DNA of 56,826 nucleotides from Rathayibacter tritici (GTDB lineage: Bacteria > Actinomycetota > Actinomycetes > Actinomycetales > Microbacteriaceae): assembly GCF_002932875.1 (NCBI RefSeq), contig NZ_PSWS01000007.1:1-56826 (forward strand), given 5' to 3'. Positions within the stretch are counted from its first letter, which is position 1. Each line of letters opens with the position of its first letter. Shown here piece by piece: positions 1 to 56,390 of the stretch. A program made the position numbers and the translations under genes. Under the pieces are notes generated by a model. That model saw nothing but the letters and a program-made list of their open reading frames with translations, was not told where the DNA came from and did not search any database.

Positions 1-90
1 CTCACCCCTCCCCGCGACAATCTGCCATATCCGACAGATCAGCTCCGTCAATTGCTCCGCATCCAGGCCTGTAGTAGAGTCGTACCGCAT
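1..90 (-). CDS. IS5-family transposase, N-terminal 30 codons (cut by window edge)
   Basis: The minus strand reads ATG at 90-88 and stays open to base 1, giving 30 residues that begin MRYDSTTGLDAEQLTELI. This matches the N-terminus at 56388 (MRYDSTTGLTSGQVTELV), which continues into a helix-turn-helix typical of IS5-family (DDE_Tnp_4 type) transposases. No catalytic DDE residues are visible because the rest lies off the window. The start codon sits in the 3' arm of a 13-bp hairpin. Family assignment rests on the similarity to the second copy and on that copy's HTH; whether this copy is intact is unknown. Confidence 0.75.
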   Translation of the reverse strand, partial: MRYDSTTGLDAEQLTELICRIWQIVAGRGE

Positions 91-154
91 CGGCTTCCCG
101 TTCCGAAAATAGCGAGCTTTGGAACTTCTATTCTCCCGAATGGGAAGCCGATGC
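87..154 (-). promoter_or_regulatory. Hairpin enclosing the transposase start codon (left copy)
   Basis: Plus-strand 87-99 and 142-154 are perfect 13-bp inverted repeats (core CATCGGCTTCCC / GGGAAGCCGATG) with a 42-base loop. Read on the minus strand, the 3' arm ends in the ATG of the transposase, so a transcript entering from outside the element could hide the start codon. The other two IS5-like ends in this window have an equivalent structure with different arm sequences. Confidence 0.7.
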
Positions 155-181
155 CTCGGAACGACACGCCCGAGTCAGACC

Positions 182-421
182 TTATGAATAACGCTCTAAG
201 ACGACCCACGAGAGCATCGGCATCCAGGGCGAAAGACGTGCGATCAGTTGATGACCCTGGCGGCGAAGCGACAGTTGAACCAGCACGAGCAGAATTCCTG
301 CGATGAGGACATAGAAAACATATCCGAAAGCGAGCACGCCTCCAATAAAAGGCGCAAGGACGAAGACGACAACGACAGTCACGGCACCGAGTCCGCAAAA
401 GCGAAGATAGACCTTCACCAC
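182..421 (-). pseudogene. Small two-TM membrane protein, C-terminus replaced by IS end
   Basis: A 79-codon reading frame starts at a GTG (421-419) preceded by a good ribosome binding site (GGAGGGG, about 5 bases upstream). The product has two hydrophobic stretches, about residues 10-25 and 31-50, followed by a basic segment (LRRQGHQL). Its last residues ERYS and the TAA stop are encoded by the terminal GAGCGTTATTCATAA of the IS5-like element, so the insertion truncated the gene. The original C-terminus and function are unknown. It lies next to a broken ATPase gene on the same strand, but I see no evidence that the two form a system. Confidence 0.55.
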
Positions 422-499
422 TGCCCCTCCTGCCGATTCAACTCATTATGCTAATGTCGGTCATATTATGTTGGAAGATTGCCCATTGAGCGGTCGCCC

Positions 500-1766
500 C
501 TACAAGGTAGGGACGCTTCCCCAAACCAGCGGGCTTGTCGTTGACGATGTACCCATGCACACTGAGAGTATACGTCCCCTCGCCCGGCTTCTTGAAGAAG
601 GCGAGTCGATGAGCTTTCCGGCTGTGACAGCAACCCCCAGCGTCCCTTCGGCCAGCGCGGTTGCGTAGCCCGGCAGATCGGTGAGGCGAGTCAACTGAGA
701 GGGATGTAGTCCATTCTCCAACTCTTCGAGGACAATGAGAACCCCGCCGATCGAACCTTCGTCACTCTGGTCCGGACGCGCGCCTACCGCGTTGTCCACA
801 TCGAGACCATGTTGAGACGAGAGTAAAGCAGTTGCAATGCCAATGAATCGCAACAACCCGTCACTCATCTGTCGCGCAGGCGTCCGCTCAGCCATCCCAC
901 CCGAGGACCCACGGACCTCCTCCAAAGCCAACATCACGTCGCCAAGATCCGACGAGACAAAAGAAATACCTTGAACTCGATCGTCGGCAATCCTGCTGAC
1001 TAAATCGGTGATCTCCTCAAAGGCCCCCCGATCAGTTCTTTCGAGATTCTGAAGAGCGGCCGACAAGTTCTCGCCGGTTCGCCGGAGGTCGACATCGCGC
1101 CCAGAAACGAAGTCCCGCATGAGATGAGGAACTGGGTCGAAGTGGAAGCCCCCCCCCCCCCCCCCGAAGGGCGACTAATACAGCGTCTGAACCCTTCAAC
1201 ACCGACTGCTCTGCAACGTCACTTCCACTCAACGCCAACGGGATCTGACTGATGATGAGACGGCTATCGCGAAACTTGTGTGGAGGATTCTTGCCTCGCT
1301 TACCGTTGTGAAGCTCCGCTTCGATGCCAGTACCGGCGCTGAGTGCACTCTTCGTTTCGACGAGGGGACCGAACGAGATCTTTCCGCTACTGACCGCCAC
1401 GCGGGGTCCCTGCAGGCGCTCCGAAATGATGCGCAAGTCGGGCCTTACTTCGATCTCCAGGTCGTAATCGTAGCGATCGGAGCCCAACTCGACCGAACAG
1501 CCCAGCTCAAAGCTGTTGGTCCCGTGAGGCGCACAACCGACAGACCCACCGCGGACCGCCCCACCCTCGCGCCTGCGACCGTCAAGGGCATCGACGAGGT
1601 CCTCGCCCTCGGCCAGACGAGCAAGAACCTCGAGCCCGTCGAGGGCATTAGATTTCCCGGAGCTGTTTCGGCCAGTGAGGAGTGTCGTGCCACCCAAAGG
1701 AAGCACGCTCCCCCGGAACGACTTGAACGCGCCCAAGCGGAGTTGAACTATCCGAGAGGTCACCAT
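500..1766 (-). pseudogene. AAA family ATPase, frameshifted at a poly-G tract
   Basis: The start is ATG at 1766 with GAGGG just upstream. The N-terminal part has a Walker A motif GRNSSGKSN (residues 32-40) after SRIVQLRLGAFKSFRG, as in SMC/RecF-like AAA ATPases. At 1149-1165 the coding strand carries 17 G residues and the frame changes. The next frame continues with FHFDPVPHLMRDFV, LRRTGENLSA and Walker B-like LIVLEELENGLHPS, ending at 500. Counting bases, a tract of 16 or 19 G would join the two frames. The segment that should hold the switch histidine after Walker B seems to be missing: ENGLHPSQ is followed at once by LTRLTDLPGYATALAEGTLG, which resembles the C-terminus of such proteins. Possible readings are decay, phase variation or a homopolymer sequencing error. 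A defence role is only a guess. Confidence 0.7.
1149..1165. repeat. 17-base C/G homopolymer inside the ATPase gene
   Basis: An uninterrupted run of 17 C on the plus strand (17 G in the coding direction) lies exactly at the point where the two ATPase reading frames part. It would encode polyglycine. Homopolymers of this length are prone to slippage during replication and to miscalling during sequencing. Confidence 0.9.
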
Positions 1767-1822
1767 TCCCTCAAGGTAGGGGAGTAACTGGTGCCGACGA
1801 CAGCTTCGAGGGCGGACCCCGC

Positions 1823-1839
1823 AGTGGGACGTTCCCACT
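1823..1839. promoter_or_regulatory. Palindrome upstream of the ATPase gene
   Basis: AGTGGGACGTTCCCACT is an inverted repeat with 7-bp arms and a 3-bp centre, lying 57 bp upstream of the ATPase start. It could be an operator; no cognate regulator is adjacent. The rest of 1767-1935 shows nothing I can assign. Confidence 0.3.
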
Positions 1840-1935
1840 ACTGCTGACCTACAAAGTGATCGTCGCATGACCCTTGGTCATCGGTCCGATCTCTTCGCTC
1901 TCGTTACAGCACTTGCTGCCCTCGACGGCACCACC

Positions 1936-3900
1936 TCAGCCCACGTGCACGCCCGGGCGGCGTTCGCGGCGCGCCTCGGCGCGGCGCAGGACCTCGCGGG
2001 TGACGGGGGCGACCTCGCCGGTGCCCGTGATGAGGAAGCGGAACATGTTCGAGAGGGGGCCGCCCTCGGTCCACTCGAAGTAGACGTCGGGGATGACGCC
2101 GGTCAGGTCGCGGATCTCGAGCAGCACGGTGGCAATGGTGTTCGGGATGTTGCCACTGGTCACCGTGAGCACGCGAAAGCCGTGGCAGACGCGCCCCTGC
2201 ACGATCAGGTCCTCCTCGAAGTCGGAGGAGTCCGTCGTGTGCACCTCCAGGAACAGCACCGGGCCGCGCATCGGCAGGTTGCTGTCGCGCTGCTCCTCCG
2301 CCAGCTTGTCGCGGTACTCCGCCTCGGATCCGTCGTCGGGTTCGTTGGCGAGGATGCGGATCACGCCGTAGTCGTCGGCGTCCGTGCTGAGGAAGTCGAT
2401 CGCGGCGGCGTCGAACACCACGGAGGTGGCGCGCAGCTGGAAGGAGCGGTGCACGCGCGAGACGAGCGAGACCGCCAGGATGCCGACGATGAACACCGCC
2501 GCGATCCGCACGCCGTCGGGCCGCTCCACCACGTTGACCACCGTCGTATAGACGAAGACGAGAGCGATCACCGCGAAGCCCACCGCTCGCTTGCGCTGGT
2601 TCTTGCGCTTGGCCGAGAGGAACACGGCGACGGACGCGGAGGTGATCAGCACGAGCACGCCGGTCGCGTAGGCCCCGCCCTGGGCGTCGACGTCGGCGCG
2701 GAAGAGGATCGTGATGACGAGGACGAGCGGACGCACGGCCCCGGCCCACTGCGGTGCCATGCCGTAGCGGGGCAGGTAGCGCGGCACGATGTTGAGCAGG
2801 CCGGCCAGAGCGGAGGCGCCCGCGAACCACAGGATGCAGATCGTCGCAATGTCGTAGACGGTGCCGAAGCCCTCGCCCAGGTACTCGTGCGCGAGGTAGG
2901 CCAGGGCGCGGCCGTTGGCCTCGCCGCCGGGTTGGAACTGCGCCTGCGGGATGAGCAGCGTGGTCACGAAGCTCGAGGTGATGAGGAACGCCGACATGGT
3001 GACGGCGGCGGTGATCAGCAGCCGTTTCGCTCCGCGGATACGGCCGACCGGAGCGTCCTCGGTGTCGCCCGCGTCGCCGCGGATCTGCGGCATGACCGCG
3101 ACTCCGGTCTCGAAGCCCGAGAGCCCGAGTGCGAGTTTGGGGAACACGATCAGGGCGATGCCGACCATGATCAGCGGATTCCCGTGCTGCGTCGTGAGCG
3201 CCGACCACCAGTCGCCGATGACGACGGGGTTCTCGGCCACGTGCCCGATCGCCACGGCGATCACGATCGCGTTGAGCAGGAGGAACACGGCCACGAGCAC
3301 GACCGCGATCGAGATCGCCTCGCGGAAGCCGCGGAGGAACACGATCCCCAGCAGAGCGATCAGGCCCAGCGTGAGCGGCACCTCCGCCCCGTGGAACCAC
3401 GCCGGGGCGAACGGGTTCTCGACCGCGTGCGCCGTCGCGTCGGCTGCCGAGAGGGTGATCGTGATCATGAAGTCGGTGGCCGCGAAGCCCAGCAGCACGA
3501 GCACGAAGAGCTTGCCGCCCCACCAGGGCAGCAGGCGCTCCAGCATCGCGATGGACCCCTCGCCGCGGAAGCTCTCGCGGGCGACGCGGCGGTACACGGG
3601 GAGCGCGCCCAGGAGCGTCAGCACCACCAGGACGATCGTCGCGAGCGGCGAGACCAGGCCCGCGGCGAGCGCCGCGATCGCCGGCTGGTAGCCGAGAGTG
3701 GAGAAGTAGTCGACGCCCGTGAGGCACATCACGCGCCACCAGGAGTGCGTCTTGGCCGTCGCCGCGTGCGGGCCGGGGTGGGCTCCGGAGTCGTCGCGCA
3801 GACCCTCGAGCAGCCACGCCTTCACCCCGCCCGCGCGCGCGGAGGAGAGAGGGGAGGGTTCGAGGGCGTCGGAGTCGCCCCGGACAACGGAAGAGGTCAC
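1936..3900 (-). CDS. APC superfamily amino-acid/cation permease with cytosolic C-terminal domain
   Basis: A 654-residue integral membrane protein starting at GTG 3900. About residues 55-470 form 11-12 hydrophobic segments with APC-superfamily features: an N-terminal [20 protein letters not shown] helix and [15 protein letters not shown] in the unwound-helix region. A soluble C-terminal domain of about 180 residues follows ([13 protein letters not shown] onwards). It differs from the KimA-like permease at 51.3 kb, although both pair an APC core with a soluble tail. The substrate is unknown; amino acid or potassium is possible. It stands alone, transcribed away from the unit at 4.0-4.5 kb. The ribosome binding site is weak, so the exact start is uncertain. 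Confidence 0.75.
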
Positions 3901-4000
3901 TGGACGTTTCTACTCGCCGTGAGCCGCTCCAGAGCCCGGAACGGGCGGATCCTCACACTTTCCTCACGGGTAATCGGCTGTGGAGGGAGGTCGGCGCGCA

Positions 4001-4360
4001 TCACACCTCGATGGTGGTGCCCGACGCGTCGATCAGGCTCACCCACACTTCGAGTCCGACGTCCTCGAACAGGTCGTTCCAGTCGCTCACCACCCGGTCG
4101 CAGAGGGCCGGGAAGAGGGGCCGGAGGTGGTGATCGCTGGTTGCGAAGGTGAGGACGACGTCGGGCGCGACGGCCGCCTGCACGGCCGACCGGTTGAACG
4201 AGATCGTGGTGCTCCGGTTCAACTCCACGATGATGTCGTTGTCGGGGATCTGCAGGATCTCCTTCGCCGCGGCGAACAGCAGGTCCATGACGGCGTCGCG
4301 GGCCTCGGTCATCCGCGCCTGGGATGTCTCGTTCTTGGGCAGGATGCGGATGTACGTCAT
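4001..4360 (-). CDS. Small alpha/beta protein, possibly tautomerase-like
   Basis: A 119-residue protein starting MTYIRILPKNETSQARMTEA. The ATG at 4360 overlaps the stop codon of the upstream 57-aa gene (ATGA), which supports this start over the longer reading frame. The layout of a short N-terminal strand, an amphipathic helix, a DNDIIVELNRSTTISF strand and a second similar half recalls 4-oxalocrotonate-tautomerase-like proteins. The residue after the initiator Met is Thr, not the catalytic Pro1 of that family, so it either lacks that chemistry or is something else. Function unassigned. Confidence 0.6.
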   Translation of the reverse strand: MTYIRILPKNETSQARMTEARDAVMDLLFAAAKEILQIPDNDIIVELNRSTTISFNRSAVQAAVAPDVVLTFATSDHHLRPLFPALCDRVVSDWNDLFEDVGLEVWVSLIDASGTTIEV

Positions 4361-4530
4361 GCGACGGACCGGCCCTCGTGGCGCGCCGCGAGATCCTGCG
4401 GCGGCCACGTCCCCGGGCAGTCACCCGCGACCAGGTGGGCGCCCTCGACCCGGGCGAGAGAGCTCAGCCGGAGCGCGGTCCCCTCCGCCACCTCGTCGGA
4501 TCTCGGGTCTTCGGACACTCGTGTCGACAT
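4357..4530 (-). CDS. 57-residue hypothetical protein coupled to the downstream gene
   Basis: ATG at 4530 opens a 57-codon frame (MSTRVSEDPRSDEVAEG...) preceded by GAGAGG about 7 bases upstream. Its TGA overlaps the next ATG by 4 bp, the coupling seen at several sure operon junctions in this window. The product is hydrophilic and contains GAHLVAGDCPGTWPP; no known family is recognised. It fills what would otherwise be a gap of about 320 bp. The coupling is the main support; a chance frame cannot be excluded. Confidence 0.5.
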   Translation of the reverse strand: MSTRVSEDPRSDEVAEGTALRLSSLARVEGAHLVAGDCPGTWPPQDLAARHEGRSVA

Positions 4531-4678
4531 CGGAGGCCTCTCGTCACGTCGTCGTGCCGGCGCGGGCCGGAGCAGGCGAGGGGCGGGGCGATGCCGTCCC
4601 GGAGCTTCCCCGCATGCGGTGGAGAGTGAAACACATCCGCTCCCGCTTCGACAACCGGCGGCGCGGTCCATGCGGCTG

Positions 4679-5275
4679 TCACCCGGTGGGGCATCCGAGC
4701 TGCGCGGCGACCGCGGTCATCGCCCGCAGTGCCTCCTCGTGCGTGGTGACGCGGTCGGCGACGATGTGGATCCCGTAACCGTCTTCGAGGGCGACGAAGG
4801 TCTGGGCGACGAGTTCCGATCCGAGGGCGGGAGTGAACGCGCCGTCCTCGATGCCGGTCGTCACGATGCTCAGGTACGTCGCGACCTGCCGGCGGTTGAG
4901 CTCCTGCATCAGTTCCTCGTGCAGGTCGGAGCTGCCGGCGAGGATGTCGAGTTCGAGGAGCAGTCGCATCAGCGCGTCGTCAGGGCCGGACGGCAGGCCG
5001 GAGCGGAACGCGACGTCGAGCTTGGCCCGCGGATCCGACTCGGCTGCGACGCGCGCATCGCGCTCGTCGCAGAAGCGGGTGACTCCGGCAGCGTGGGCCT
5101 CGACCAGGAGCGAGTCGAGATCCTCGTAGTAGTACAGGACGGCGCCACGGGTCAGGCCCGCCTGCTTGGCGACGTCGGTCAGCGAGAGCGAGCGCAGACC
5201 GCGTTCGAGTCCAGCGGCGTAGGTCGCCTCGATGAGGGAGTTCCGCCGCGCCGCCTGATCACGTTGACGAGCCAC
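4679..5275 (-). CDS. TetR family transcriptional regulator (BetI-like)
   Basis: A 198-residue protein with an N-terminal TetR helix-turn-helix at about residues 12-55 (LSLTDVAKQAGLTRGAVLYYYEDLDSLL) and an all-helical C-terminal ligand domain. It is transcribed divergently from a small membrane protein/SDR pair. A perfect 11-bp-arm inverted repeat at 5315-5342 lies between them, so it probably represses both itself and the divergent genes. The ligand is unknown. The genes it faces suggest control of an alcohol or oxoacid dehydrogenase pathway. Confidence 0.85.
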   Translation of the reverse strand: MARQRDQAARRNSLIEATYAAGLERGLRSLSLTDVAKQAGLTRGAVLYYYEDLDSLLVEAHAAGVTRFCDERDARVAAESDPRAKLDVAFRSGLPSGPDDALMRLLLELDILAGSSDLHEELMQELNRRQVATYLSIVTTGIEDGAFTPALGSELVAQTFVALEDGYGIHIVADRVTTHEEALRAMTAVAAQLGCPTG

Positions 5276-5314
5276 CTGTTGACAGTACCGGCGCGCCGTG
5301 CCACTGTCTCTCCT

Positions 5315-5342
5315 AATTCTTTGACGCTGATGTCAAAGAATT
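5315..5342. promoter_or_regulatory. TetR operator candidate
   Basis: AATTCTTTGAC, a 6-bp spacer GCTGAT, then GTCAAAGAATT form a perfect inverted repeat in the divergent promoter region. It starts 40 bp from the TetR start codon and ends 29 bp before the small membrane protein. Its size and AT content stand out against the GC-rich flanks. Confidence 0.75.
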
Positions 5343-5371
5343 ATCGCGCCCCGTCGAGAAGAAAGCCGCAC

Positions 5372-5575
5372 ATGTCCCAGACCCCTGTCACCCCCGCCCT
5401 GGGCGAGGCCCCGATCGGCCTCTTCGACTCCGCTCAGTGGGCCAGCCTCGGTGTCGCGGCGGGAATCGTCGTCGCCGGCTACGTCTACGACGCCCTGTAC
5501 CTCCGGCCTCGGAAGGGTACGCAGTTCCTCATGCTGGAGGCGCGCGACGACGCTTCGACCGAGTCCACCGGCTGA
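5372..5575 (+). CDS. Small single-TM membrane protein
   Basis: A 67-residue product (MSQTPVTPALGEAPIG...) with ATG at 5372 and a purine-rich binding site (GAGAAGAAAG) about 6 bases upstream. One hydrophobic segment, WASLGVAAGIVVAGYVYDALYL at about residues 24-45, is followed by a short charged tail. It is the first gene after the TetR operator, 51 bp before the SDR gene, so the two are probably co-transcribed. I do not recognise a family. It could be a membrane anchor or accessory peptide for the dehydrogenase system; that is inference. Confidence 0.6.
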   Translation: MSQTPVTPALGEAPIGLFDSAQWASLGVAAGIVVAGYVYDALYLRPRKGTQFLMLEARDDASTESTG

Positions 5576-5626
5576 CGACCGCCCGCGCACCTCGCAGCCC
5601 CGCCCCCACGTGAAGAGAGAGAACCC

Positions 5627-6406
5627 ATGACTGACTCAAGCGACATCGCCATCGTGACCGGAGCGGGAAGCGCCGAGGGGATCGGCGCCGCGACGGCACT
5701 CCTGCTCGGACGCGCCGGCATGCGCGTGGTCGTCACCTCGACGACCGAGCGCATCCAGGAGCGCGTCGCCGACCTGAGGAGGGCCGGCGTCGACGCCCAC
5801 GGGGTGGCGGCCGACCTGACGGGGCAGCTCGGGGTGGATGCGGTGCTCGACGCCGCGCGCCGCGCGTTCGGCGAGCCGACCGTCCTCGTCAACAACGCCG
5901 GCATGACCTCGGTGTCCACGGCCGACTCCCCCGCCGCGATCGACGACATCACCATCAACCAGTGGGCCATGTCCCTGGAGCGCAACCTCACCACCGCGCT
6001 GCGGATGACGCGGGCCGTGGTGCCCGCCATGAGAGCTGCCGGATACGGCCGCGTCGTGAACGTGTCGTCCCTCTCCGGAGCGGTCATGGCGTACTCCGGT
6101 GACGTCGCCTACCACGCCGCCAAGGCCGGGATGCTCGGGCTGACCAGGGGGGCCGCGGTCGATGTCGCCGCCGCCGGGATCACCGTCAACGCCGTCGCGC
6201 CCGGATGGATCGCCACGTCGTCCTCCAGCGAGCACGAGATCGCGATGGGGGCGGCGACCCCCGTGGGGCGTTCGGGGACGCCGGTGGAGGTCGCGGCCGC
6301 CGTGGCGTTCCTCGCCGGTCGCAGCGCGTCCTACATCACGGGACAGCTGCTCATCGTCGACGGAGCCAACTCCATCAACGAGGAACGCGGGGCTGCTGCT
6401 GAGTGA
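5627..6406 (+). CDS. SDR family oxidoreductase
   Basis: A 259-residue classical short-chain dehydrogenase/reductase. It has the nucleotide-binding TGAGSAEGIGAATA, the NNAG motif and the catalytic Ser148, Tyr162 and Lys166 (YHAAK). The C-terminal GQLLIVDGANSI is typical of 3-oxoacyl-reductase-like members. AGAGAGAG just upstream of ATG 5627 is the likely ribosome binding site. It follows the small membrane protein under the TetR operator. Its 3' end overlaps the convergent agmatine deiminase by 32 bp. The substrate cannot be read from the sequence. Confidence 0.9.
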   Translation: MTDSSDIAIVTGAGSAEGIGAATALLLGRAGMRVVVTSTTERIQERVADLRRAGVDAHGVAADLTGQLGVDAVLDAARRAFGEPTVLVNNAGMTSVSTADSPAAIDDITINQWAMSLERNLTTALRMTRAVVPAMRAAGYGRVVNVSSLSGAVMAYSGDVAYHAAKAGMLGLTRGAAVDVAAAGITVNAVAPGWIATSSSSEHEIAMGAATPVGRSGTPVEVAAAVAFLAGRSASYITGQLLIVDGANSINEERGAAAE

Positions 6407-7406
6407 TGCAGTGGATCCCGCCCCCGCGGTCGAAGATCGGGCGGGCGTCGATCGTCACGACGCGGCGACCGGGGTAGGCGTCGGCGATCATCTCCCGGGC
6501 ACGTGCGTCAGCGGCCTCATCACCGAAGCCGCACAGCACGACGCCGTCGTTGGTGACGAGGTGGTTGATGTAGCTCCAGTCCAGCCAGCCTCCGTCGTCG
6601 CGGAGCGCCGTGGGAGCGGGGATGCCGGTGATGGTCACCTTCCGGCCGCGGGCGGCGAAAGCGGACTCGAGCTCGGCGCGGATAAGCCGCGACACCTCGT
6701 AGTCGGGGTGGCCGGGGTCGGTCTGCTCGTGCAGGAGGACGTGCTCCGGCGTGGCGAAGGTGGCGACCATGTCGACGTGGCCCTTGGTGCCGAGGTCTTC
6801 GTAATCGCGGGTCAGGCCCCGCGAGAGCCAGATCGCGTCGGTTGCCCCGATGGTGCGGGCCATCTCCGTGTCGACGCGGCGACGGTCGGCGAAGGGGTTG
6901 CGGCGCGGGTCGAGCTGCACCGTCTCGGTGAGCAGAACGGTCCCGGTGCCGTCGACGTGGAGACCACCGCCTTCGGCCACGAGGAGGGAGTCGATGCGCT
7001 CGATGCCCCTGTGCTCAGCGACCAGGCGGGCGATGTCGGCCGACTTCTGCCACTCGGCCCAGTGGGGCGCTCCCCAACCATTGAAGATCCAGTCGACCGC
7101 GCCGAGGACTCCAGGCCGTTCGGAATCGACCACGAAAGTGGGGCCCATGTCGCGCATCCAGAACTCGTCGATGGGGGCCTCGATGATCTCGACCGTCGAG
7201 GCGAGCATGCGCCGGGCGCGGGTCATCTCGGTGGGGTCGACCATCATGGTCACCGGCTCGAACTCCTCGACCGCGTGAGCGACGTCGGTCCACGCGCGGT
7301 AGCCCTCCTCGCGGCCCTCGGCATCGTCGCCGAGGGTGATCCCTTCGCGAGGGAACGCCATCCAGGTGCGTTCGTGCGGGGCGGTTTCTGCGGGCATGCG
7401 CCACAT
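6375..7406 (-). CDS. aguA: Agmatine deiminase family protein
   Basis: A 343-residue guanidino-modifying (PPAD-like) enzyme. It carries FWMRDMGPTFV, EGGGLHVDGTGT, KGHVDMVATF and, at the C-terminus, GGGIHCITQQQP with the nucleophile Cys333. The family hydrolyses agmatine to N-carbamoylputrescine and ammonia in the cytosol. The start is supported by AAGGAG 8 bases upstream of ATG 7406. It is the last gene of a minus-strand operon after the amidase and the kinase/aminotransferase fusion, 29 bp downstream of the latter. Putrescine oxidase and GABA genes nearby fit agmatine-to-succinate catabolism, although no N-carbamoylputrescine amidase is obvious unless the amidase at 10.3 kb does that step. 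Confidence 0.88.
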   Translation of the reverse strand: MWRMPAETAPHERTWMAFPREGITLGDDAEGREEGYRAWTDVAHAVEEFEPVTMMVDPTEMTRARRMLASTVEIIEAPIDEFWMRDMGPTFVVDSERPGVLGAVDWIFNGWGAPHWAEWQKSADIARLVAEHRGIERIDSLLVAEGGGLHVDGTGTVLLTETVQLDPRRNPFADRRRVDTEMARTIGATDAIWLSRGLTRDYEDLGTKGHVDMVATFATPEHVLLHEQTDPGHPDYEVSRLIRAELESAFAARGRKVTITGIPAPTALRDDGGWLDWSYINHLVTNDGVVLCGFGDEAADARAREMIADAYPGRRVVTIDARPIFDRGGGIHCITQQQPRVPR

Positions 7407-7435
7407 GGCGTGCTCCTTTTCCGGGTCGGGGTGGG

Positions 7436-10297: not shown

Positions 10298-10313
10298 GGC
10301 GGTTCCTCGGGTG

Positions 10314-12338: not shown

Positions 12339-12343
12339 GGCCG

Positions 12344-41277: not shown

Positions 41278-41286
41278 CGGCCCAGG

Positions 41287-45947: not shown

Positions 45948-46060
45948 GCCCTCGGTCTACCACGGCCAGGCCCAGCACTCATCCCCTCGACGACGCACGA
46001 GGGCACCCGACACCGCAGCCTGAGAACCGCCCGAGGCCTGTTGCGAGGCGTCCCGATCGA

Positions 46061-46097
46061 GATATATCGTGACAACACCAACTCGCGATGTATCGCG
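46061..46097. promoter_or_regulatory. PadR operator candidates
   Basis: GATATATC (46061-46068) and the 14-bp palindrome CGCGATGTATCGCG (46084-46097) lie 38-74 bp before the DUF4097 start. PadR proteins often bind ATAT/ATGT-containing palindromes before their own operon, and the PadR gene is the second gene here. Confidence 0.55.
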
Positions 46098-46134
46098 TTT
46101 CCGCAAGGCACCGCAGGTGCAGGAGGAGGAGCTC

Positions 46135-47738: not shown

Positions 47739-47745
47739 CAGCGCG

Positions 47746-47777
47746 GTAGGCGGGGAACTCCCCAAGTCCCCGCCTAC
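47746..47777. terminator. Hairpin between convergent PadR and antiporter genes
   Basis: GTAGGCGGGGA (47746-47756) and TCCCCGCCTAC (47767-47777) are perfect 11-bp arms around a 10-base loop; the right arm includes the antiporter stop codon. There is no T-run. It probably acts as a bidirectional terminator for the convergent pair. Confidence 0.6.
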
Positions 47778-49345: not shown

Positions 49346-49420
49346 CGCGTCTCTCCTCCCGGGCGTCCTGGCGCCACGGCCCTAGTGTGGCCGTCCGGCG
49401 GGCCCGGCGACGAGCGTCAG

Positions 49421-50416
49421 TTACCGCCCGGCCTCGTGGATGTCGCGTGCTTTCGTGACCTTCGCCGGGTCCACTGGGTTCATCCCGAGCACGATCTTGC
49501 CCCGCGAGTGCCGCTTCTCGAGGTCGTCGAAGGCGTCCTGCACCTGATCGAAGGGGTAGAAGCCCGACACGAGCACCCGCAGCTTCTGCTCGGCGACCAG
49601 GCCGACCAGCTCGCCCAGGATCTCGGTGTCGCGCTGGGCCGTCTCGGCGTCGGGCCACACGGCGCGCAGCTCGATCTCCTTGCGGTCGTCGCTGGAGTGG
49701 AAGCGCCCCGCCGCGATGCCGAGCTCGTCGGCCAGGGCGTCGTTCTCTCCGCCGAAGTTATCGAGGAACACCGTGACTCCGTCGCGCGCCGCGGCGCGGA
49801 TGCGCTCGGCGATCCCATCGCCGTAGACCACCGGCTTCACGCCGATCTGGCGGAGGTAGTCGAAGTTCCGCTCGCCGCAGGTGCCGATCACGGATGCACC
49901 GCGCAGCTTCGCGAGCTGGATCTCGAGGCTGCCCACTCCTCCGGCCGCGGCGGAGACGACAACGGTGTCGTGGGGTCCGACGTGCGTGGCCTCGAGCGCG
50001 CGCCAGGCCGTCACTCCGGCGAGGAACAGTGCTCCGCCGACCTCCCAGCTCACGGAGGCGGGCTTGGCGACGAGGTTGCGGCGCGGCACCACGATGTGGG
50101 TGGCGTGCGAGCCGACGAGCGCGTGGCCGACCACATTACTGCGGAGTTTGAGATCGGTGACGCCCTGGCCCAGGGCGACGACGACCCCCGAGAAGTCGGT
50201 GCCCTGGCGCATCGGGAAGGCGGCGGAGTGGGCGGAGTCGAACCGGCCCTGTCGGATGAACGCCTCCATGTGGTTCACCCCGGCGGAGAGCACCTCTACG
50301 AGAACCTCGCCCGTTCCGGGCCTGGGCCGCTCGACCTCGGCGATCTCGAGGACATCCGCGTCGCCGAATCGGCGGTATTGGACGACGCGGGCGGCGGTGG
50401 GGCTCAGTCGGGACAT
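49421..50416 (-). CDS. Quinone-oxidoreductase-like medium-chain dehydrogenase
   Basis: About 331 residues from ATG 50416 (MSRLSPTAARVVQYRRFG; ATG 50437 is also possible). It has the zinc-independent MDR fold: GVNHMEAFIRQGR, GTDFSGVVVALG, VSAAAGGVGSLEIQLAKLRGA for NADPH binding, and a KIVLGMNP tail. Such NADPH:quinone or enone reductases protect against reactive carbonyls and oxidants. It lies 59 bp downstream of the zinc-ribbon gene on the same strand and near an OhrR-type regulator, which would fit an oxidative-stress unit. Confidence 0.85.
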   Translation of the reverse strand: MSRLSPTAARVVQYRRFGDADVLEIAEVERPRPGTGEVLVEVLSAGVNHMEAFIRQGRFDSAHSAAFPMRQGTDFSGVVVALGQGVTDLKLRSNVVGHALVGSHATHIVVPRRNLVAKPASVSWEVGGALFLAGVTAWRALEATHVGPHDTVVVSAAAGGVGSLEIQLAKLRGASVIGTCGERNFDYLRQIGVKPVVYGDGIAERIRAAARDGVTVFLDNFGGENDALADELGIAAGRFHSSDDRKEIELRAVWPDAETAQRDTEILGELVGLVAEQKLRVLVSGFYPFDQVQDAFDDLEKRHSRGKIVLGMNPVDPAKVTKARDIHEAGR

Positions 50417-50475
50417 GCGCTCATCATCCGCCCCCACCGCCCGAAGCTCCTGACCCCCGAACGGGGACGTGCGAC

Positions 50476-50688
50476 TCAGGAGGCGTCGCTCGGGCAGTAC
50501 AGCTGGGTCCGTGGTCCCGAGCGGTCGATCACATGCTCGGACATCGGTCGTCCGCAGAGCGGGCAGGCCCGGCCCGCCGACGCCTCCTGCTCGGGCTGGT
50601 TGTACGGGCCCAGCGGCGGCGGACCAAGCCAGGGGAACAGCCGCGCATTGAAGCGCTGGTAGAGGGAGCCGGTCTTTTTCCGCGTCAT
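50476..50688 (-). CDS. Small zinc-ribbon protein
   Basis: A 70-residue protein with RACPLCGRPMSEHVI ... LYCPSDAS, giving CPxC and a later Cys of a zinc ribbon. The N-terminus is basic (MTRKKTGSLYQRFNARLFPW). A -10-like TACACT lies six bases before the ATG on the minus strand, so the message may be leaderless, and this element overlaps the palindrome TTAGTGTACTAA. Divergent from the OhrR-type gene, it is probably repressed by it. The function is unknown; the family is widespread in actinobacteria. Confidence 0.8.
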   Translation of the reverse strand: MTRKKTGSLYQRFNARLFPWLGPPPLGPYNQPEQEASAGRACPLCGRPMSEHVIDRSGPRTQLYCPSDAS

Positions 50689-50692
50689 ATCC

Positions 50693-50704
50693 TTAGTGTA
50701 CTAA
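50693..50704. promoter_or_regulatory. MarR/OhrR operator candidate
   Basis: TTAGTGTACTAA has perfect 5-bp arms and lies between the divergent zinc-ribbon and MarR-family genes, over the -10 region of the former and 30 bp before the latter. Confidence 0.6.
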
Positions 50705-50733
50705 CCATCAGTGCGCGATGAGAGGATGTCGTT

Positions 50734-51174
50734 GTGGAACCCGACCCGCTCGCCCTCCAGAACCAGGTGTGCTTCTCCCTCGCCGTCGCGGCGCGCACCG
50801 TCATCGGCCTGTACCGACCCGTGCTCGAACCGCTCGGACTCACGCATCCGCAGTACCTCGTGATGCTCGCGCTCTGGGAGCGCAGCCCGCGCTCGCTCGC
50901 CGACCTCGGCTCCGCCCTGCACCTCGAACCGGCCACCCTCAGCCCGCTCGTGAAGCGCCTGGAGGCGAGCGGCCACCTCACCCGCGCGCGCAGCAGCGAT
51001 GACGAGCGCCGCCTCGACGTCGCACTGACCCCCTCCGGACGAGCGCTGCGCGAGCAGGCACTGCAGGTCCCCCCGCAGATCGTCGAGCGCCTCGACGTCC
51101 CTCTCGACGAGCTCACCGGGCTCCGCGACAGCCTCACCCGCATGATCGGAGCTGCCACCCGCGGCAGCCGCTAA
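50734..51174 (+). CDS. MarR family regulator, OhrR type
   Basis: A 146-residue regulator. The N-terminus LQNQVCFSLAVAARTVIGLYRP carries Cys13 at the position of the peroxide-sensing Cys of OhrR, and PQYLVMLALWE and the wing RSSDDERRLDVALT match the same group. OhrR derepresses its targets on organic hydroperoxide oxidation. No ohr gene is adjacent; the nearest divergent genes are the zinc-ribbon protein and the quinone oxidoreductase. AGAGGA lies about 8 bases before GTG 50734. Confidence 0.83.
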   Translation: MEPDPLALQNQVCFSLAVAARTVIGLYRPVLEPLGLTHPQYLVMLALWERSPRSLADLGSALHLEPATLSPLVKRLEASGHLTRARSSDDERRLDVALTPSGRALREQALQVPPQIVERLDVPLDELTGLRDSLTRMIGAATRGSR

Positions 51175-51310
51175 CCCCCTCTCGGGGCACCCGCGCCCAG
51201 CACCTCACCTGCCGCACATCACAGCACAGGGAAACTCCCGGTCACAGGGCGAGATCAGCCTCCGCTCGGCCCGCTCCCGGGCGTCGTGACTGCCCCCGTG
51301 CAACGGAGTA

Positions 51311-53461
51311 GTGTCGTCGCTCGTGACACACGAGGGTCCCCCGTCCGCCGCGGACGGATCACCGACCGACGCGACCGAGCTGCGCACCGCGAAGCACTTC
51401 TTCATCGGCGAGCCGCTCCCGAGCGACAAGCTCGAGGGGCAGCTGCTGCAGAAGCGGCTCGCGCTTCCCATCTTCGCCAGCGACCCGCTCTCCTCCGTGG
51501 CCTACGCGCCGCAGGAGCTGCTGATGATCCTGCTGCTCGGCGGGCTCTCCTTCCTCACCTTCGCGCCCTGGGTCGCCGCCTGCGTGGTCGTGCTGCTCGT
51601 CGTGGTGGTGCTGAGCTATCGCCAGCTGATTCGGGCCTACCCGTCCGGAGGCGGCGACTACGAGGTCGCCCGCACCAATCTGGGCGAAACGGCGGGCCTC
51701 ACGGTCGCGTCCGCACTGCTCGTGGACTACGTGCTTACCGTGGCCGTGTCGGTCGCCTCCGGAGTCGACAACATCATCTCGGCGGTCCCCGAGCTGGCGC
51801 CGTTGCGGGTCGAGCTGGCCATCCTCTTCGTGGTGCTGCTCGCGGCTGTGAACCTTCGCGGCGTCTCGGAGTCGAGCCGCGCCTTCGCGATCCCGACCTA
51901 CTTGTTCGTCGCGAGCGTCTTCGCGATGGTCGTGGTCGGCCTGATCCGCACTGTCGTCGGCGACACCCCGGTGGCGGAGTCGGCGGGCTTCACCGTGCAG
52001 GGCGAGCAGCTCACGCAGGCGGCCGTAGTGCTCCTGCTGCTGCGCTCCTTCGCCAGCGGCTGCGCGGCGCTCACCGGCGTCGAGGCGATCTCGAACGGGG
52101 TGCCCGCGTTCCGGGCGCCGAAAGTCAAGAACGCGCAGCGCACGCTCGTCGCGATGGGGACGATCGCGATCGTGCTCTTCGTCGGCCTCACCGCGCTCGC
52201 ACTGCTCTCCAACGTGCACTACGCCGAGAACGCCTGCCACCTCGTAGGCTTCGCCGACTGCGCCACCACTCCGCAGCGCTCGGTGATCGCGCAGGTGGCC
52301 GCGGCCACCTTCGGCAATAACACGATCCTGTTCTTCATCATCCAGGCGGCGACCGCCGCCGTCCTGCTCCTGGCCGCGAACACTGCCTTCAACGGCTTCC
52401 CGCTGCTGGGTTCGGTCCTGGCCCGCGACGGCTACGCGCCCAAGTCGCTGAACACGCGCGGCGACCGCCTGATCTACTCCAACGGAGTGATCATCCTGGC
52501 GCTCGTGGCCGCGATCATCCTGCTCGTCTACCAGGCCTCGCTCACGAGCCTCGTGCAGCTCTACATCATCGGCGTCTTCGTGTCGTTCACGCTCGGGCAG
52601 TCGGGCATGGTCAAGCACTGGATGCGGATGATCCGCAACGGCGAAGGCTCGCGCACCGTCTACACGAGCCTGGGTATCAACCTGTTCGGCGCGACTCTGA
52701 CCTTCGCGGTGCTTGTGGTCGTCACGATCACGAAGTTCACCCACGGGGCCTGGCTCGTCTACCTGGTGATGCCGATCCTCGGCTTCCTGATGGCCGGCGT
52801 CTACCGCTACTACCGCGACGTCGAGAAGGAGATCGAGGTCGACCCGACCACGACCTTCGGTGCGAACGGCGACCACGCGATCGTCCTCGTAGGCCGGATG
52901 AACAAGCCCACCCTGAAGGCGCTCGACTACGCCATCGCGGCGCGGCACGAGACGCTGGAAGCGGTGCACTCCTCCATCGACGACGCGCAGACCGCGCAGC
53001 TCAAGGCCGACTGGGCGCGAATGGACATCGAGGTGCCGCTGCGCTGCGTCGCTTCGCCCTATCGCGACATCTCCTATCCGCTCATCAAGTACATCAAGGC
53101 GCACCGCCTCGAGCACGGCTCCGAAATCACCACGGTCTACATGCCGCAGTACATCGTCGGGCACTGGTGGGAGGCGTTCCTGCACAACCACAAGTCGAGG
53201 CGGATCCGCCAGAAGCTGCTGCTCGTGCACGGAGTGACGGTGGCGCTGGTCCCGTGGCTGCTCGACTCCTCCGAGCTGATCTACGGGCGCCGCTCTCGGC
53301 CGATCCCCGGGCAGTCGCGTCGAGGCGAGCCGGTGCGACCGGTAACCCGTCGGCCGATCCCGCCCGCGTCATCGCTCCCGCAGGGCGCCGCCGGCGAGGG
53401 AGCCCCGCGCATCCCGCAGCGTCCGGCCGCGGCGAATCGTCCGCGCTCGAAGCGGCGCTGA
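51311..53461 (+). CDS. KimA-like APC permease (probable potassium importer)
   Basis: A 716-residue membrane protein (712 if GTG 51323 is used). A hydrophilic N-terminus ends in KLEGQLLQKRLALPIFASDP; LSSVAYAPQELLMILLLGG starts about 12 hydrophobic segments, with YPSGGGDYEVART and LRGVSESSRAFAIPTY. A cytosolic C-terminal domain follows (GDHAIVLVGRMNKPTLKALD). This matches KimA-type APC proteins, K+/H+ symporters inhibited by c-di-AMP in Bacillus. TAGTGT nine bases before GTG 51323 may be the -10 of a leaderless mRNA. A GC-rich terminator follows. Amino-acid transport is the alternative. Confidence 0.85.
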   Translation: MSSLVTHEGPPSAADGSPTDATELRTAKHFFIGEPLPSDKLEGQLLQKRLALPIFASDPLSSVAYAPQELLMILLLGGLSFLTFAPWVAACVVVLLVVVVLSYRQLIRAYPSGGGDYEVARTNLGETAGLTVASALLVDYVLTVAVSVASGVDNIISAVPELAPLRVELAILFVVLLAAVNLRGVSESSRAFAIPTYLFVASVFAMVVVGLIRTVVGDTPVAESAGFTVQGEQLTQAAVVLLLLRSFASGCAALTGVEAISNGVPAFRAPKVKNAQRTLVAMGTIAIVLFVGLTALALLSNVHYAENACHLVGFADCATTPQRSVIAQVAAATFGNNTILFFIIQAATAAVLLLAANTAFNGFPLLGSVLARDGYAPKSLNTRGDRLIYSNGVIILALVAAIILLVYQASLTSLVQLYIIGVFVSFTLGQSGMVKHWMRMIRNGEGSRTVYTSLGINLFGATLTFAVLVVVTITKFTHGAWLVYLVMPILGFLMAGVYRYYRDVEKEIEVDPTTTFGANGDHAIVLVGRMNKPTLKALDYAIAARHETLEAVHSSIDDAQTAQLKADWARMDIEVPLRCVASPYRDISYPLIKYIKAHRLEHGSEITTVYMPQYIVGHWWEAFLHNHKSRRIRQKLLLVHGVTVALVPWLLDSSELIYGRRSRPIPGQSRRGEPVRPVTRRPIPPASSLPQGAAGEGAPRIPQRPAAANRPRSKRR

Positions 53462-53482
53462 GCCCCCCATCAAACGGGTAGA

Positions 53483-53508
53483 GGGCCCGCGGCGTCAGCC
53501 GCGGGCCC
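53483..53508 (+). terminator. Terminator-like hairpin after the KimA-like gene
   Basis: GGGCCCGCGGC, loop GTCA, then GCCGCGGGCCC form a perfect 11-bp GC stem 22 bp after the stop codon. Only a short T stretch follows (GATTTCC). Confidence 0.8.
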
Positions 53509-53524
53509 CCGATTTCCCCTTGCT

Positions 53525-53575
53525 GCCTTCCCCCGAAGGCGGCCCGCCCCAACGGGCCGTGTCCGACGCTATCGG
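53525..53575. other. Three consecutive short hairpins; SRP-RNA-like stretch on minus strand
   Basis: GCCTTC-CCCC-GAAGGC (53525-53540), GGCCCG-CCCCAA-CGGGCC (53541-53558) and CCGA-CGCTA-TCGG (53563-53575) follow the terminator directly. On the minus strand GGAAGGCAGCAAGGGG matches the 3' side of the conserved domain of actinobacterial SRP RNA, but the partner 5' side (CAGG plus GCC before the GGAA loop) is absent and another hairpin takes its place. A degenerate or unrelated structured RNA is possible. Confidence 0.35.
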
Positions 53576-53643
53576 CAGGCTATGCACTCGCGCATCCTCC
53601 TCACGGCGGATGCCCGTGCTCCCTTCAGGGGACCGCTTCCGCC

Positions 53644-54272
53644 TCAACCGACGGCGCCGAGGCCGGTCAGCCACCAGACAGCGGCGACCGCGACCACCGC
53701 CCCTCCGCCTCCGGCCACGAGCAGGATCGACGCCCGCACCACCTGCGCACCGGAAGCGGCGTCGAGCGGGTCAACACCCGCCCCAGCGAGCACGATCCCT
53801 GCCTGCAGCACCGCGGCCGCGAGCTCGATCGCCGCCGCCGCGATCCGCGCGGACTGTCGGCCGTCCGGGTCCAGCGACCGCGGACGCCTGCCGACGTACC
53901 AGACCACGCGCCGATCCGGAGGCCGAGCAGCCGAGCACGCCGCTCGCGTACTGCGACCACCCGTAGCCGCGGAAGGGCCCGAGCTGCTGCTGCAGCACCG
54001 GAATCGCCGAGACGAGGAGGCCGCCTCGATGGGTGACGCCGTCCCACACCACGTGGCTGCCCGCTCCGATGACGACTCCGGCGGCCGAGCAGCAGGTCGA
54101 CCGTGACAACGCCCAGGAGGGAGTGGCTCGACTCGCGTGCGACACCGATCGGAAAATACATCCCAATGTCCGGCATCATCGCGCCGACCGCCACCGCGGC
54201 GGCGGGGATCCGACCGTTCGAGACCGCGAGCGCGACGACGGCATGGCTCAGCGTGAAAGGTATGACGCGCAC
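53644..54272 (-). pseudogene. DUF4184 family membrane protein, multiply frameshifted
   Basis: The coding signal moves through three frames on the minus strand. Frame one starts at 54272 (MRVIPFTLSHAVVALA ... AVGAMMPDIGMYFPIG ... SSHSLLGVVTVDLLLG). Near 54085 it shifts to VVIGAGSHVVWDGVTHRGG ... GYGWSQYASGVLG, and near 53930-53915 to VVWYVGRRPRSLD ... VVAVAAVWWLTGLGAVG, ending at 53644. The order matches DUF4184 (integral membrane, metal-dependent hydrolase-like proteins with SHxxWD). Each shift needs a gain or loss of one or two bases, so the gene is broken unless the sequence is wrong. No other gene explains this stretch. Confidence 0.65.
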
Positions 54273-54750
54273 GCTATCCCGGCGGCAGCACGACCGGCGC
54301 GGTCCGCGGCCGCGAAGAGTGCGTCACCGGTCCGAGCCGGGCCCCTGCGATTCCGACCGCCGCAGCCCCCGCTCGGGGGCGGTCGCCGCAGGCGAGACAT
54401 CCGCTTGCTCGTACGCCCCTCCCTACGCTCTCGACGCCGGCCTGCTTCGTCCGGCACGTCGGTACTCTCGGGAAGGTCAACAAGGCTTGCAGTGAAGCTA
54501 CCCTGCGAACCCCGGCGGGAGTCGAGGACTTCCCCCTGAGCGGCCATTCACGTGAATGATCCCATCCCGACAGGACAGAAGTACTCCACGTCCGCGATAA
54601 TTTACCGCGTCAGGTCCACGCTACGGTGGGGAGAGCCTGGTTCTGGCGATACTGATCACCTGGGCGTGAAGAGGACGTAATGGTGGACGGTATCACTAGA
54701 AAAGGTCCCGGTGTCTTGTGCTCCTCGGTGACACCGATTGACCTCTCATA
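54273..54750. other. Gap without a credible gene; one 14-bp palindrome
   Basis: Reading frames here are short, overlapping and rich in Arg/Pro, as expected of GC-rich non-coding DNA. A perfect palindrome CATTCACGTGAATG lies at 54545-54558 without an obvious dependent promoter. Base composition drops towards AT-richer after about 54540, marking the accessory tail of the window. Confidence 0.5.
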
Positions 54751-55128
54751 ATGAGGACAATAACCGCTAGAAGCTCTAGCATCTTGAACATCTTCTTCGA
54801 CGTCGTAGCGGCTGCGATCCTCGTCGGAACTGGTCTGAGCGGCGCCCCAGCTGCGACTTCCGCCGGGCCCGCGAACGCCGATGCCATTACGGTCTGCGAG
54901 GGCAGTTCGTTGTCGACACTCGATTCTTCTGGGGCACCTCTTCCGCAGGAACAGAGTGACGTTCTCGTGAGGCAGCTGCAAGGTCTGTGCGATGCCAGCG
55001 TCGGTACGAGTCGGGAGTTCGGTGAGGACACCTCCGACCGGCTCGACGCCGAGGCGAAGCAGAGCGACGGCTTCTCTGCGAACGTTGCAGCACAGATCAA
55101 CGCCGGGCCCGGTGTCATGGGAATCAGT
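54751..55128 (+). pseudogene. Secreted protein, 3' end replaced by an IS5-like end
   Basis: ATG 54751 opens a frame whose first 126 residues look like a real exported protein: a hydrophobic segment SSILNIFFDVVAAAILVG, a small-residue region APAATSAGPANADA suited to signal cleavage, then a hydrophilic body with two Cys (ITVCEGS, QGLCDAS). At about 55129 an IS5-family end (GAGGCTTATGCACAA) begins; the frame runs on into it by chance to 55278. The original C-terminus is lost and no family is recognised. It is near an immunity-like gene, but a toxin role cannot be claimed. Confidence 0.45.
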
Positions 55129-55188
55129 GAGGCTTATGCACAACCTGTTTGTGGGTTATCGATCGGAGCGTGTCGCTCACGAATGAAA

Positions 55189-55251
55189 CCGACCGATCCG
55201 CTTTACTCGAGAAATACTTCTGACGGAACTTCTCGCGAAGGAATCGGCCGG
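55189..55251 (+). promoter_or_regulatory. Hairpin enclosing the transposase start codon (middle copy)
   Basis: CCGACCGATCC (55189-55199) can pair with GGAATCGGCCGG (55240-55251) with two wobbles or bulges; the GTG start begins at 55251, the last base of the 3' arm. This is the weakest of the three pairings. Confidence 0.45.
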
Positions 55252-55390
55252 TGCGCACACAGACTACTACGGGAATGACCTCCGAGCAATGTGCTCTCCT
55301 CGCCGGACGAATCGAGAACGAGTTCATCTGGCGCAGACCTACCGGGCGCCCGCGGAAGCTTTCTTTCTCACGAGCACAGAATCTCGTCCT
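55251..55390 (+). pseudogene. IS5-family transposase N-terminal remnant
   Basis: About 46 residues from GTG 55251: TTGMTSEQCALLAGRIENEF then RRPTGRPRKLSFSRAQNLVLDF. This is the N-terminal pattern of IS5-family transposases (compare MRYDSTTGLTSGQVTELVARI at 56388). After LVLDF the frame no longer resembles a transposase, and no HTH or DDE region follows, so only the first tenth or so of the gene survives. Confidence 0.6.
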
Positions 55391-55519
55391 GGATTTCCGA
55401 CAGTCGTTCACAACTGGTCACGTTGGGCATCAGCTTCCTCTTCGGCTAGTCTTGGGCGCAGTATATAAATGCTCCAGAAAACGTAACGCGGCTCAAACCT
55501 CGCCCGAGCTTTCTTATAT

Positions 55520-56263
55520 CTACCTACGAGCGAGGATCTCGTGTTGGATCCGCAGACCGAGTTGCACCTCTTCCAGAGAGTTCGCGCCGAGCACGCGACC
55601 GTCGCCGATGCGGAACGATACCCCGTCTTTGAGCGGCTCATGCCGTACCCCGTCCGGAAGAAACTCGACGAACGAAGAGTCCGCCCGGTAGTTCAGCCAA
55701 CCCAGCTGCTCTTTCGTTTCTGAGTTACGCACTGCGCCACGGTAAGCCTGCTCGGTGACGAGCGCGCGATCAGGGTTCCACAAATCGATCATGTATCGAA
55801 ACACCTGCTCAGACACCACCGGGTCAAGCAACGGCGACGCAGAATCGGCCACCGTCAACGTCACGCTACTCGACAGGCGAGGACTTGTAGCTCCCGCAAA
55901 TATCGACACGTGCACGAAGTCACGCGTTTGTTGCCTTTCTGGCTCGGTCACAAGGTTAAAGCTCCAACCGACACTTGCCGTTGAATTCGCGGTGGGGCAC
56001 CCGTTATCATCAAGGTGCGTGAAGAAATGCTTAGGAGCATCCATATCCCAGCCGCGTTCGAGCATAAGCTCCTCAAGGTGCTGTAGATCAGCTCCGAGCG
56101 GTTTCTCGTCGTTCATTCGATCGCCGAGCACATGCCACGTTTCGAAGACGGGATGCAACTCTCGTAGCCCTTCAAGGAACTTTCGCACCTGGATTGTGAA
56201 CTGACCGAAGGTCAGTTCACGCGATTCCCAGAATGCGGCGAGATATGATTGAAACGTCGTCAT
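55520..56263 (-). CDS. Immunity-protein-like (possible Imm52 family)
   Basis: A 247-residue soluble acidic protein. Recognisable pieces are GLRELHPVFETWHVLGDR, a central WSFNLVTEPE and beta-rich VSIFAGATSPRLSSSVTLTV, and IDLWNPDRALVTEQAYRG ... QLGWLNYRA near the C-terminus. The order of these blocks resembles Imm52-type immunity proteins of polymorphic toxin systems. GAGGAA precedes ATG 56263. An IS5-like element starts only 20 bp upstream of the start codon, so its native promoter is probably lost. No intact toxin gene is adjacent. Base use is AT-richer than in the core genes, fitting acquired DNA. Family call from memory, moderate certainty. Confidence 0.55.
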   Translation of the reverse strand: MTTFQSYLAAFWESRELTFGQFTIQVRKFLEGLRELHPVFETWHVLGDRMNDEKPLGADLQHLEELMLERGWDMDAPKHFFTHLDDNGCPTANSTASVGWSFNLVTEPERQQTRDFVHVSIFAGATSPRLSSSVTLTVADSASPLLDPVVSEQVFRYMIDLWNPDRALVTEQAYRGAVRNSETKEQLGWLNYRADSSFVEFLPDGVRHEPLKDGVSFRIGDGRVLGANSLEEVQLGLRIQHEILARR

Positions 56264-56326
56264 GGTTCCTCGCTCTGGCTCAGAGCGTTATTCATAAGGT
56301 CTGTTTCGCGCGTGTCGCTGTGAAGA

Positions 56327-56390
56327 CATCGACTTCTCGCGGGAGAGAATGGAAGTTCCTACACACCATTCTTGAAGCGAGAAGTCGATG
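56327..56390 (+). promoter_or_regulatory. Hairpin enclosing the transposase start codon (right copy)
   Basis: CATCGACTTCTCGC (56327-56340) and GCGAGAAGTCGATG (56377-56390) are perfect 14-bp arms around a 36-base loop; the ATG 56388-56390 and the purine-rich sequence before it lie in the 3' arm. Compared with the left copy several arm bases differ on both sides so that pairing is kept. Confidence 0.75.

What the first reader, a model, noticed from the sequence alone, without database searches (positions are those of the whole stretch)
87..56390. Conserved start-codon hairpin in three IS5-family ends, with changes that keep pairing
At 87-154 (minus), 56327-56390 (plus) and, less perfectly, 55189-55251 (plus), the transposase start codon sits in the 3' arm of a hairpin about 105-120 bp inside the element end. 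The first two have perfect arms with different sequences: CATCGGCTTCCC/GGGAAGCCGATG against CATCGACTTCTCGC/GCGAGAAGTCGATG. Changes occur on both arms, which argues for selection on structure. IS10 and IS50 are known to use hairpins that hide the start in transcripts entering from outside. Here a -10-like TATTTT in the left copy's loop would let the element's own mRNA begin after the 5' arm and stay translatable. This would be a read-through-silencing device in an IS5 group.
Basis: partly seen in the sequence, partly recalled or inferred. Interest (0 to 1): 0.75.

Follow-up and report, generated by a model that had tools for sequence, protein, structure and literature searches.

The report
Hairpin hiding a transposase start codon
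A family of small jumping genes in actinobacteria appears to hide the start signal of its own moving enzyme inside an RNA hairpin, whose pairing has been kept although its letters changed; the trick is known from other jumping genes, so this is a new and widespread example rather than a new principle.

Summary
Both good hairpins lie where stated; the third copy is weak and decayed.

The feature is wider than three copies. Of 53 starts of relatives in several actinobacterial groups, 36 pair with their upstream region better than all but at most one of 300 shuffles. The start codon covaries with its partner: ATG faces U in 15 of 19, GTG faces C in 11 of 11, TTG faces A or G in 3 of 3. IS112-like copies lack the hairpin at their annotated start, and IS3-type controls from carrier genomes rarely show one (1 of 29 with z of 3 or more).

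Best explanation: an RNA lock on transposase translation in any transcript carrying the 5' arm. The proposed promoter in the loop is not supported: TANNNT in 4 of 36 loops, 6.0 expected. Read-through silencing is therefore plausible, not shown. IS200 and ISPpu9 work alike; IS10 and IS50 too, as recalled.

The parts
88..153 (-). Start-codon hairpin of the left element; outer arms 153-142 and 99-88, start codon ATG at 90-88
180..196 (-). Terminal repeat of the left element, GAGCGTTATTCATAAGG read on the minus strand
   Evidence: relatives' two ends
1..90 (-). First 30 codons of the left element's transposase, cut by the window start
56327..56390 (+). Start-codon hairpin of the right element; outer arms 56327-56340 and 56377-56390, start codon ATG at 56388-56390
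56283..56299 (+). Terminal repeat of the right element, GAGCGTTATTCATAAGG
   Evidence: relatives' two ends
56388..56618 (+). N-terminal 77 codons of the right element's transposase (HTH_Tnp_4), followed by sequence that looks like an IS3-type element
   Evidence: the IS3-type reading is from the sequence, not from a search
55188..55252 (+). Weak, decayed start-codon hairpin of the third element (subgroup VRTQ...)
   Evidence: not significant on its own
55129..55140 (+). Terminal repeat of the third element, GAGGCTTATGCA
   Evidence: same end in intact relatives
55251..55385 (+). Remnant of the third element's transposase start (GTG)

Best explanation
The leader of these IS5-type elements folds, as RNA, into a long hairpin whose 3' arm holds the ribosome-binding region, in most subgroups the start codon, and in some codons 2-3. 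A transcript that contains the 5' arm, above all one entering from a neighbouring gene, should therefore give little transposase, so that the element is not switched on by chance transcription where it lands. Shown here: the hairpin, its nearly constant place, its covariation including the start codon, its spread and its absence in some sister clades. Inferred: that it lowers translation, and that transcripts from outside are the main target. Not shown: where the element's own mRNA starts, and what opens the hairpin if that mRNA carries it.
For: Covariation in the window type: 92.5% of cells paired, 31 double-change cells against 10.7, score 0.372 against 0.208, 0 of 500 shuffles for each; RNAalifold finds the outer stem by itself, 5 of 12 pairs with double changes. 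36 of 53 starts pair with their upstream region better than all but at most one of 300 shuffles; in 35 of these 36 the 5' arm begins 61-72 bases before the start codon. Start codon and partner change together. Own leader beats other leaders: mean self score 40.2 against 24.6 in permutations, 0 of 20,000. 21 of 27 leaders fold better than all 200 shuffles. Opening the start region costs at least 3.9 kcal/mol more with the 5' arm than without in 26 of 30 leaders. Of 27 sense-strand matches of the covariance model in 7 whole genomes, 7 were read and lie at start codons of this family, and the other 20 lie at transposase starts found earlier. Control: IS3 OrfA starts, 1 of 29 with z of 3 or more, against 9 of 28 for PF13613-family starts.
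Against: No expression data. No shared promoter in the loop or by consensus scan in the two window copies. G-U against A-C counts do not single out the RNA strand (39 against 44 with even scoring). Two covariation measures are not above shuffles: pairs with a double change 7 against 5.7 (139 of 500 as high) and further pair types 16 against 18.9 (500 of 500), and shuffles do not correct for relatedness. The start codon itself is predicted less paired, or equal, with the 5' arm present in 8 of 30 leaders. Ten of 53 starts are not significant. In 7 of 53 the best helix stops short of the start codon.
Confidence: 0.55

Rival explanations
1. A general brake: the element's own mRNA also carries the hairpin, so transposase translation is low from every transcript, and breathing, a small RNA, translation from upstream or a host factor opens it now and then.
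For: No shared promoter was found inside the hairpin. IS200 and ISPpu9 leaders hide the ribosome site in the element's own transcript.
Against: No promoter was found upstream of the hairpin either: TANNNT in 8 of 36 leaders, 11.7 expected. The loop and inner stem are richer in A+T than the arms in the three groups profiled, which would also suit a promoter there.
Confidence: 0.35
2. A DNA-level inverted repeat, such as a binding site for the transposase or a host protein, that happens to overlap the start codon.
For: G-U and A-C cells are about equally frequent, so the RNA strand is not singled out; the element ends carry other conserved sequence.
Against: Arm letters differ widely between related elements while pairing stays, which does not suit a sequence-specific site; the arm follows the start codon's own changes.
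Confidence: 0.07
3. Chance pairing or mere sequence similarity of copies.
For: The third window copy alone is not significant; two covariation measures are not above shuffles.
Against: and folding of 21 of 27 leaders beyond all shuffles.
Confidence: 0.02

Closest known systems
IS200 (IS200/IS605 family) leader stem-loops
   Same: A stem-loop hides the ribosome-binding site of the transposase mRNA (passage of PMC12594629); a separate stem-loop terminates impinging transcripts (passage of PMC3196728).
   Different: Unrelated transposase type (recalled). Here the start codon itself is paired in most subgroups and covaries, and no significant second stem was found in the one group tested.
ISPpu9 transposase mRNA leader
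   Same: 5' leader structure thought to bury the ribosome site; weakening it raised expression 26-fold in a fusion (passages of PMC8450116).
   Different: Other IS family (recalled as IS110-type); opened by an antisense RNA there, while none was looked for here.
IS10 and IS50 read-through hairpins (IS4 family)
   Same: Recalled, no paper seen: a hairpin in transcripts from outside hides the transposase start, while the element's own mRNA begins inside the 5' arm.
   Different: In the elements here no promoter inside the hairpin could be shown.
IS1237 and ISLxx6 of Leifsonia xyli (IS5 family)
   Same: 899 bp, assigned to the IS427 group but with IS1031-like amino acids and, for ISLxx6, a three-base target; the authors suggest another group within IS5 (passages of PMC2516522). 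Window-type relatives L031, L033 and L009 are 895-898 bp.
   Different: The words hairpin, secondary structure and start codon do not occur in that paper. I could not fetch these elements, so kinship is untested.
IS112-like elements of Streptomyces (PF13613 family)
   Same: Same N-terminal domain family; they fall in the same tree.
   Different: No helix with z above 2 at the annotated start in L166 (IS112), L167, L005 or L007.

Membership tests
IS5 family (broad sense) | DDE_Tnp_4 catalytic domain with HTH_Tnp_4 above Pfam's gathering scores | tested here: met
   L009 and L013: 66.6 and 73.2 bits against 24.8, and 37.3 and 36.6 against 27; window right copy HTH_Tnp_4 31.1 against 27. That these domains mark IS5 is recalled.
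NCBIfam transpos_IS5_4 / transpos_IS5_3 | Score above the curated cut-off | tested here: not met
   69.7, 49.6 and 47.3 bits against 140 for transpos_IS5_4; about 30 against 110 for transpos_IS5_3. They are the two best matches, but below cut-off.
IS1031 group of IS5 (features recalled) | 3-bp target duplication, TNA target | tested here: inconclusive
   13 of 19 elements have equal 3-bp flanks; 6 of the 13 are TNA (L009, L011, L013, L033, L055, L069) and 7 are not. The group's definition is recalled.
Start-hiding leader hairpin of an insertion sequence | Ribosome site or start codon in a stem with the upstream leader, beyond chance | tested here: met
Start-hiding leader hairpin of an insertion sequence | Lower translation when the hairpin is present | not testable with these tools
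   Only predicted opening energies
IS10/IS50-type read-through protection | Own promoter inside the hairpin, so that own mRNA lacks the 5' arm | tested here: inconclusive
   No shared -10 motif in the loop; actinobacterial promoters are poorly caught by such motifs
Rfam family | Match above gathering score | tested here: not met
   0 matches in the window and loci L009, L013, L043, L143, L056

The most novel reading that the evidence does not exclude
A fast-changing, element-specific RNA lock that is an old control of a large actinobacterial IS5 lineage: every transcript is locked, and each subfamily's arms have been rewritten in step, start codon included, so that only a matching RNA or factor opens its own elements and not those of rival subfamilies in the same genome.
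Probability: 0.12. Interest if true: 0.8.

Novelty: new member of a known kind. Interest (0 to 1): 0.5.

Why it matters
It offers many natural repeats of one experiment: the letters of the lock change, the pairing stays, and the start codon follows. That makes it testable whether transposons keep such locks to guard against transcription from outside or to set their overall rate of movement, in a phylum from which our searches listed no paper on this kind of control.

Tried and rejected
A shared promoter in the loop: not above chance. Choice of strand by G-U against A-C counts: undecided. A second upstream hairpin in the Promicromonosporaceae-type leaders, as in IS200: z from -2.0 to +0.4 in 7 leaders, not convincing. 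IS112-like, two further Streptomyces clade members and one Deinococcus copy: no helix with z above 2 at the annotated start in 5 of 5 starts; one internal GTG of L166 has z 2.8. Searches without relatives: plasmid DNA, viral contigs, phages. Leifsonia IS1237 was looked for through relatives and not reached. Rfam: nothing. A first structure string was one column off; repeated correctly.

Selections: one search used 38 of the 53 starts. One search used 30 leaders. One search used 22 of the 53 plus 10 of the 22 PF13613-type starts, the ten picked because they showed a helix, which favours the result. One search used 26 plus 10 such leaders. In one search, 28 of 30 PF13613 loci and 29 of 30 control loci had a scorable start; the PF13613 loci had more candidate starts per locus, which favours them somewhat, and one of the nine high scores (L137) is not at the usual place. 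In the tree the hairpin labels are mine and include Rothia rows and the decayed L032, whose own tests were weak; two of the PF13613 proteins chosen (L128, L140) fell out by the script's length limit. The 53 starts hold near-identical copies.

Full report
Observation. The left region folds better than all 200 shuffles (z -5.1), the right better than 196 of 200 (z -2.7). The third copy is not significant and sits in a decayed gene of another subgroup.

What the elements are. Transposases of this type carry HTH_Tnp_4 and DDE_Tnp_4 domains, but score below the NCBIfam cut-offs for the named IS5 models. I looked at both ends of 19 relatives. For 16 the right end was found at a total length of 895-961 bp, one (L028) measures 771 bp, and in two (L039, L050) no right end was recognised. 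Equal 3-bp flanks, a likely target duplication, are seen in 13 of 19; 6 of these are TNA. The right window copy's first 75 residues are 95% identical to a copy in Rathayibacter tanaceti, and one 945-bp stretch of the window is 93% identical to genome G223 and 83% to the R. tanaceti genome. I infer that the window is from Rathayibacter or a close relative.

How common the close type is. In samples of whole genomes, matches were found in 4 of 299 of the R. tanaceti family at E 0.001 (one of the four, G019, is a weak match that does not look like a transposase start), 3 of 398 of the same family at E 1e-15, 6 of 347 in the order of Luteimicrobium at E 1e-30 and 2 of 394 in the class at E 1e-40; the query genomes themselves are among these. 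Eleven loci came from the genome collection and one plasmid record with two copies from a search with the short query.

Hairpins in relatives. I compared 53 element starts, near-identical and decayed copies included, with 300 dinucleotide shuffles of their upstream region. In 36 of 53 at most one shuffle pairs as well, in 43 of 53 at most five. One of the 36 (L064, Rothia type) owes its score to a helix elsewhere; in the other 35 the 5' arm starts 61-72 bases before the start codon. The ten without significance are the third window copy, L032, L022, L042, L027 and L025, and four Rothia-type starts. Folding the leader from -75 to +12, 21 of 27 beat all 200 shuffles; among five Rothia-type leaders two do (L003, L059), with the TTG start in a closing CAACGG/CCGTTG stem. 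The pairing includes at least part of the start codon in 46 of 53, weak ones included, and stops short of it in 7 of 53.

Covariation. In the window type (13 sequences), 92.5% of cells pair, and sliding partners by 1-3 columns gives 36-50%. Cells with change on both sides are 31 against 10.7 and the covariation score is 0.372 against 0.208, 0 of 500 shuffles for either. Two measures are not above shuffles: pairs with a double change (7 against 5.7, 139 of 500) and further pair types (16 against 18.9, 500 of 500). Shuffles do not correct for relatedness. Among 38 representatives, 33 have a partner for the first base of the start codon: ATG with U in 15 of 19 (the others face A three times, C once), GTG with C in 11 of 11, TTG with A or G in 3 of 3. 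Among 32 representatives each 3' region pairs best, or joint best, with its own leader in 20, and the mean self score of 40.2 exceeds all 20,000 permutations (mean 24.6); in most of the 12 other cases a near relative's leader scores higher, but L025, L141 and the third window copy rank only 12th, 8th and 8th.

Breadth and controls. In a class-wide PF13613 sample (55 of 246 genomes with a match), 9 of 28 scorable loci have a start with z of 3 or more and 3 of 28 with z of 4 or more, against 1 of 29 and 0 of 29 for IS3 OrfA starts from six carrier genomes. Eight of the nine lie 90-99 bases before the domain, with a helix over a ribosome-site-like stretch such as AGGAGC or AGGGG. IS112-like copies and a Deinococcus copy show no such helix at their annotated start. 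On a tree of 49 proteins the hairpin label, given by me, needs 3 changes, against 13.7 in shuffles, so it marks a few large clades. A covariance model of the window type gives 44 matches in 5 of 7 whole genomes: 27 on the sense strand, and 17 on the opposite strand of the same places. I read 7 of the 27, all at start codons of intact or decayed members; the other 20 coincide with transposase starts found before. Rfam has no match.

Mechanism. With the 5' arm present, opening the start region is predicted to cost 20.2 (right) and 28.7 (left) kcal/mol in the window copies, and 7.4 and 9.3 without it. The gain is at least 3.9 kcal/mol in 26 of 30 leaders; the exceptions are the third window copy and Rothia-type L003, L004 and L059. 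The start codon alone is predicted more paired with the arm in 22 of 30, less in 7 and equal in 1. The lock is thus well supported as a structure and inferred as a function. A promoter inside the hairpin is not supported as a shared feature, and none was recognised upstream either. Read-through silencing stays plausible because IS200 and ISPpu9 do related things and, as recalled, IS10 and IS50 do exactly that; but a general brake is a serious rival.

Literature. Eight searches listed no paper that, judged from title and the start of the abstract, describes such a hairpin in IS5-type elements of actinobacteria. Only openly licensed papers were searched, and not every hit was listed. I saw passages, not whole texts, of PMC8450116, PMC12594629, PMC3196728, PMC2516522, PMC12428005, PMC5006887, PMC2266710 and PMC13393415. 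Statements on IS10, IS50, IS1031 and the IS5 groups are recalled unless a passage is cited.

Noticed in passing
window 1149-1165: A run of 17 C inside an ORF on the minus strand (1032-1868); it could be a variable tract or an assembly slip.
   Followed up: no
window 56615-56826: The right element is broken after about 77 codons by sequence that looks like an IS3-type element (MTERKARDVQ... frame); a group-B copy in genome G223 (L050) appears to be broken by a similar sequence.
   Followed up: no
L192 and L195 (genome G632): A further arm variant, CATCGGCTGC/GCAGCCGATG, with a quite different loop, before a start reading MLYQSTT, near contig ends.
   Followed up: partly
left ends of the window-type and VRTQ-type elements, e.g. 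window 56300-56326: A stretch like GATTTGCGCGTGTCG follows the left repeat but not the right one, in two transposase subgroups; its role (promoter or binding site) is open.
   Followed up: partly
L001, L013, L014, L069, about 90-115 bases before the start codon: A second small inverted repeat (CTGACC...GGTCAG) in Promicromonosporaceae-type leaders; folding is not clearly better than shuffles.
   Followed up: partly
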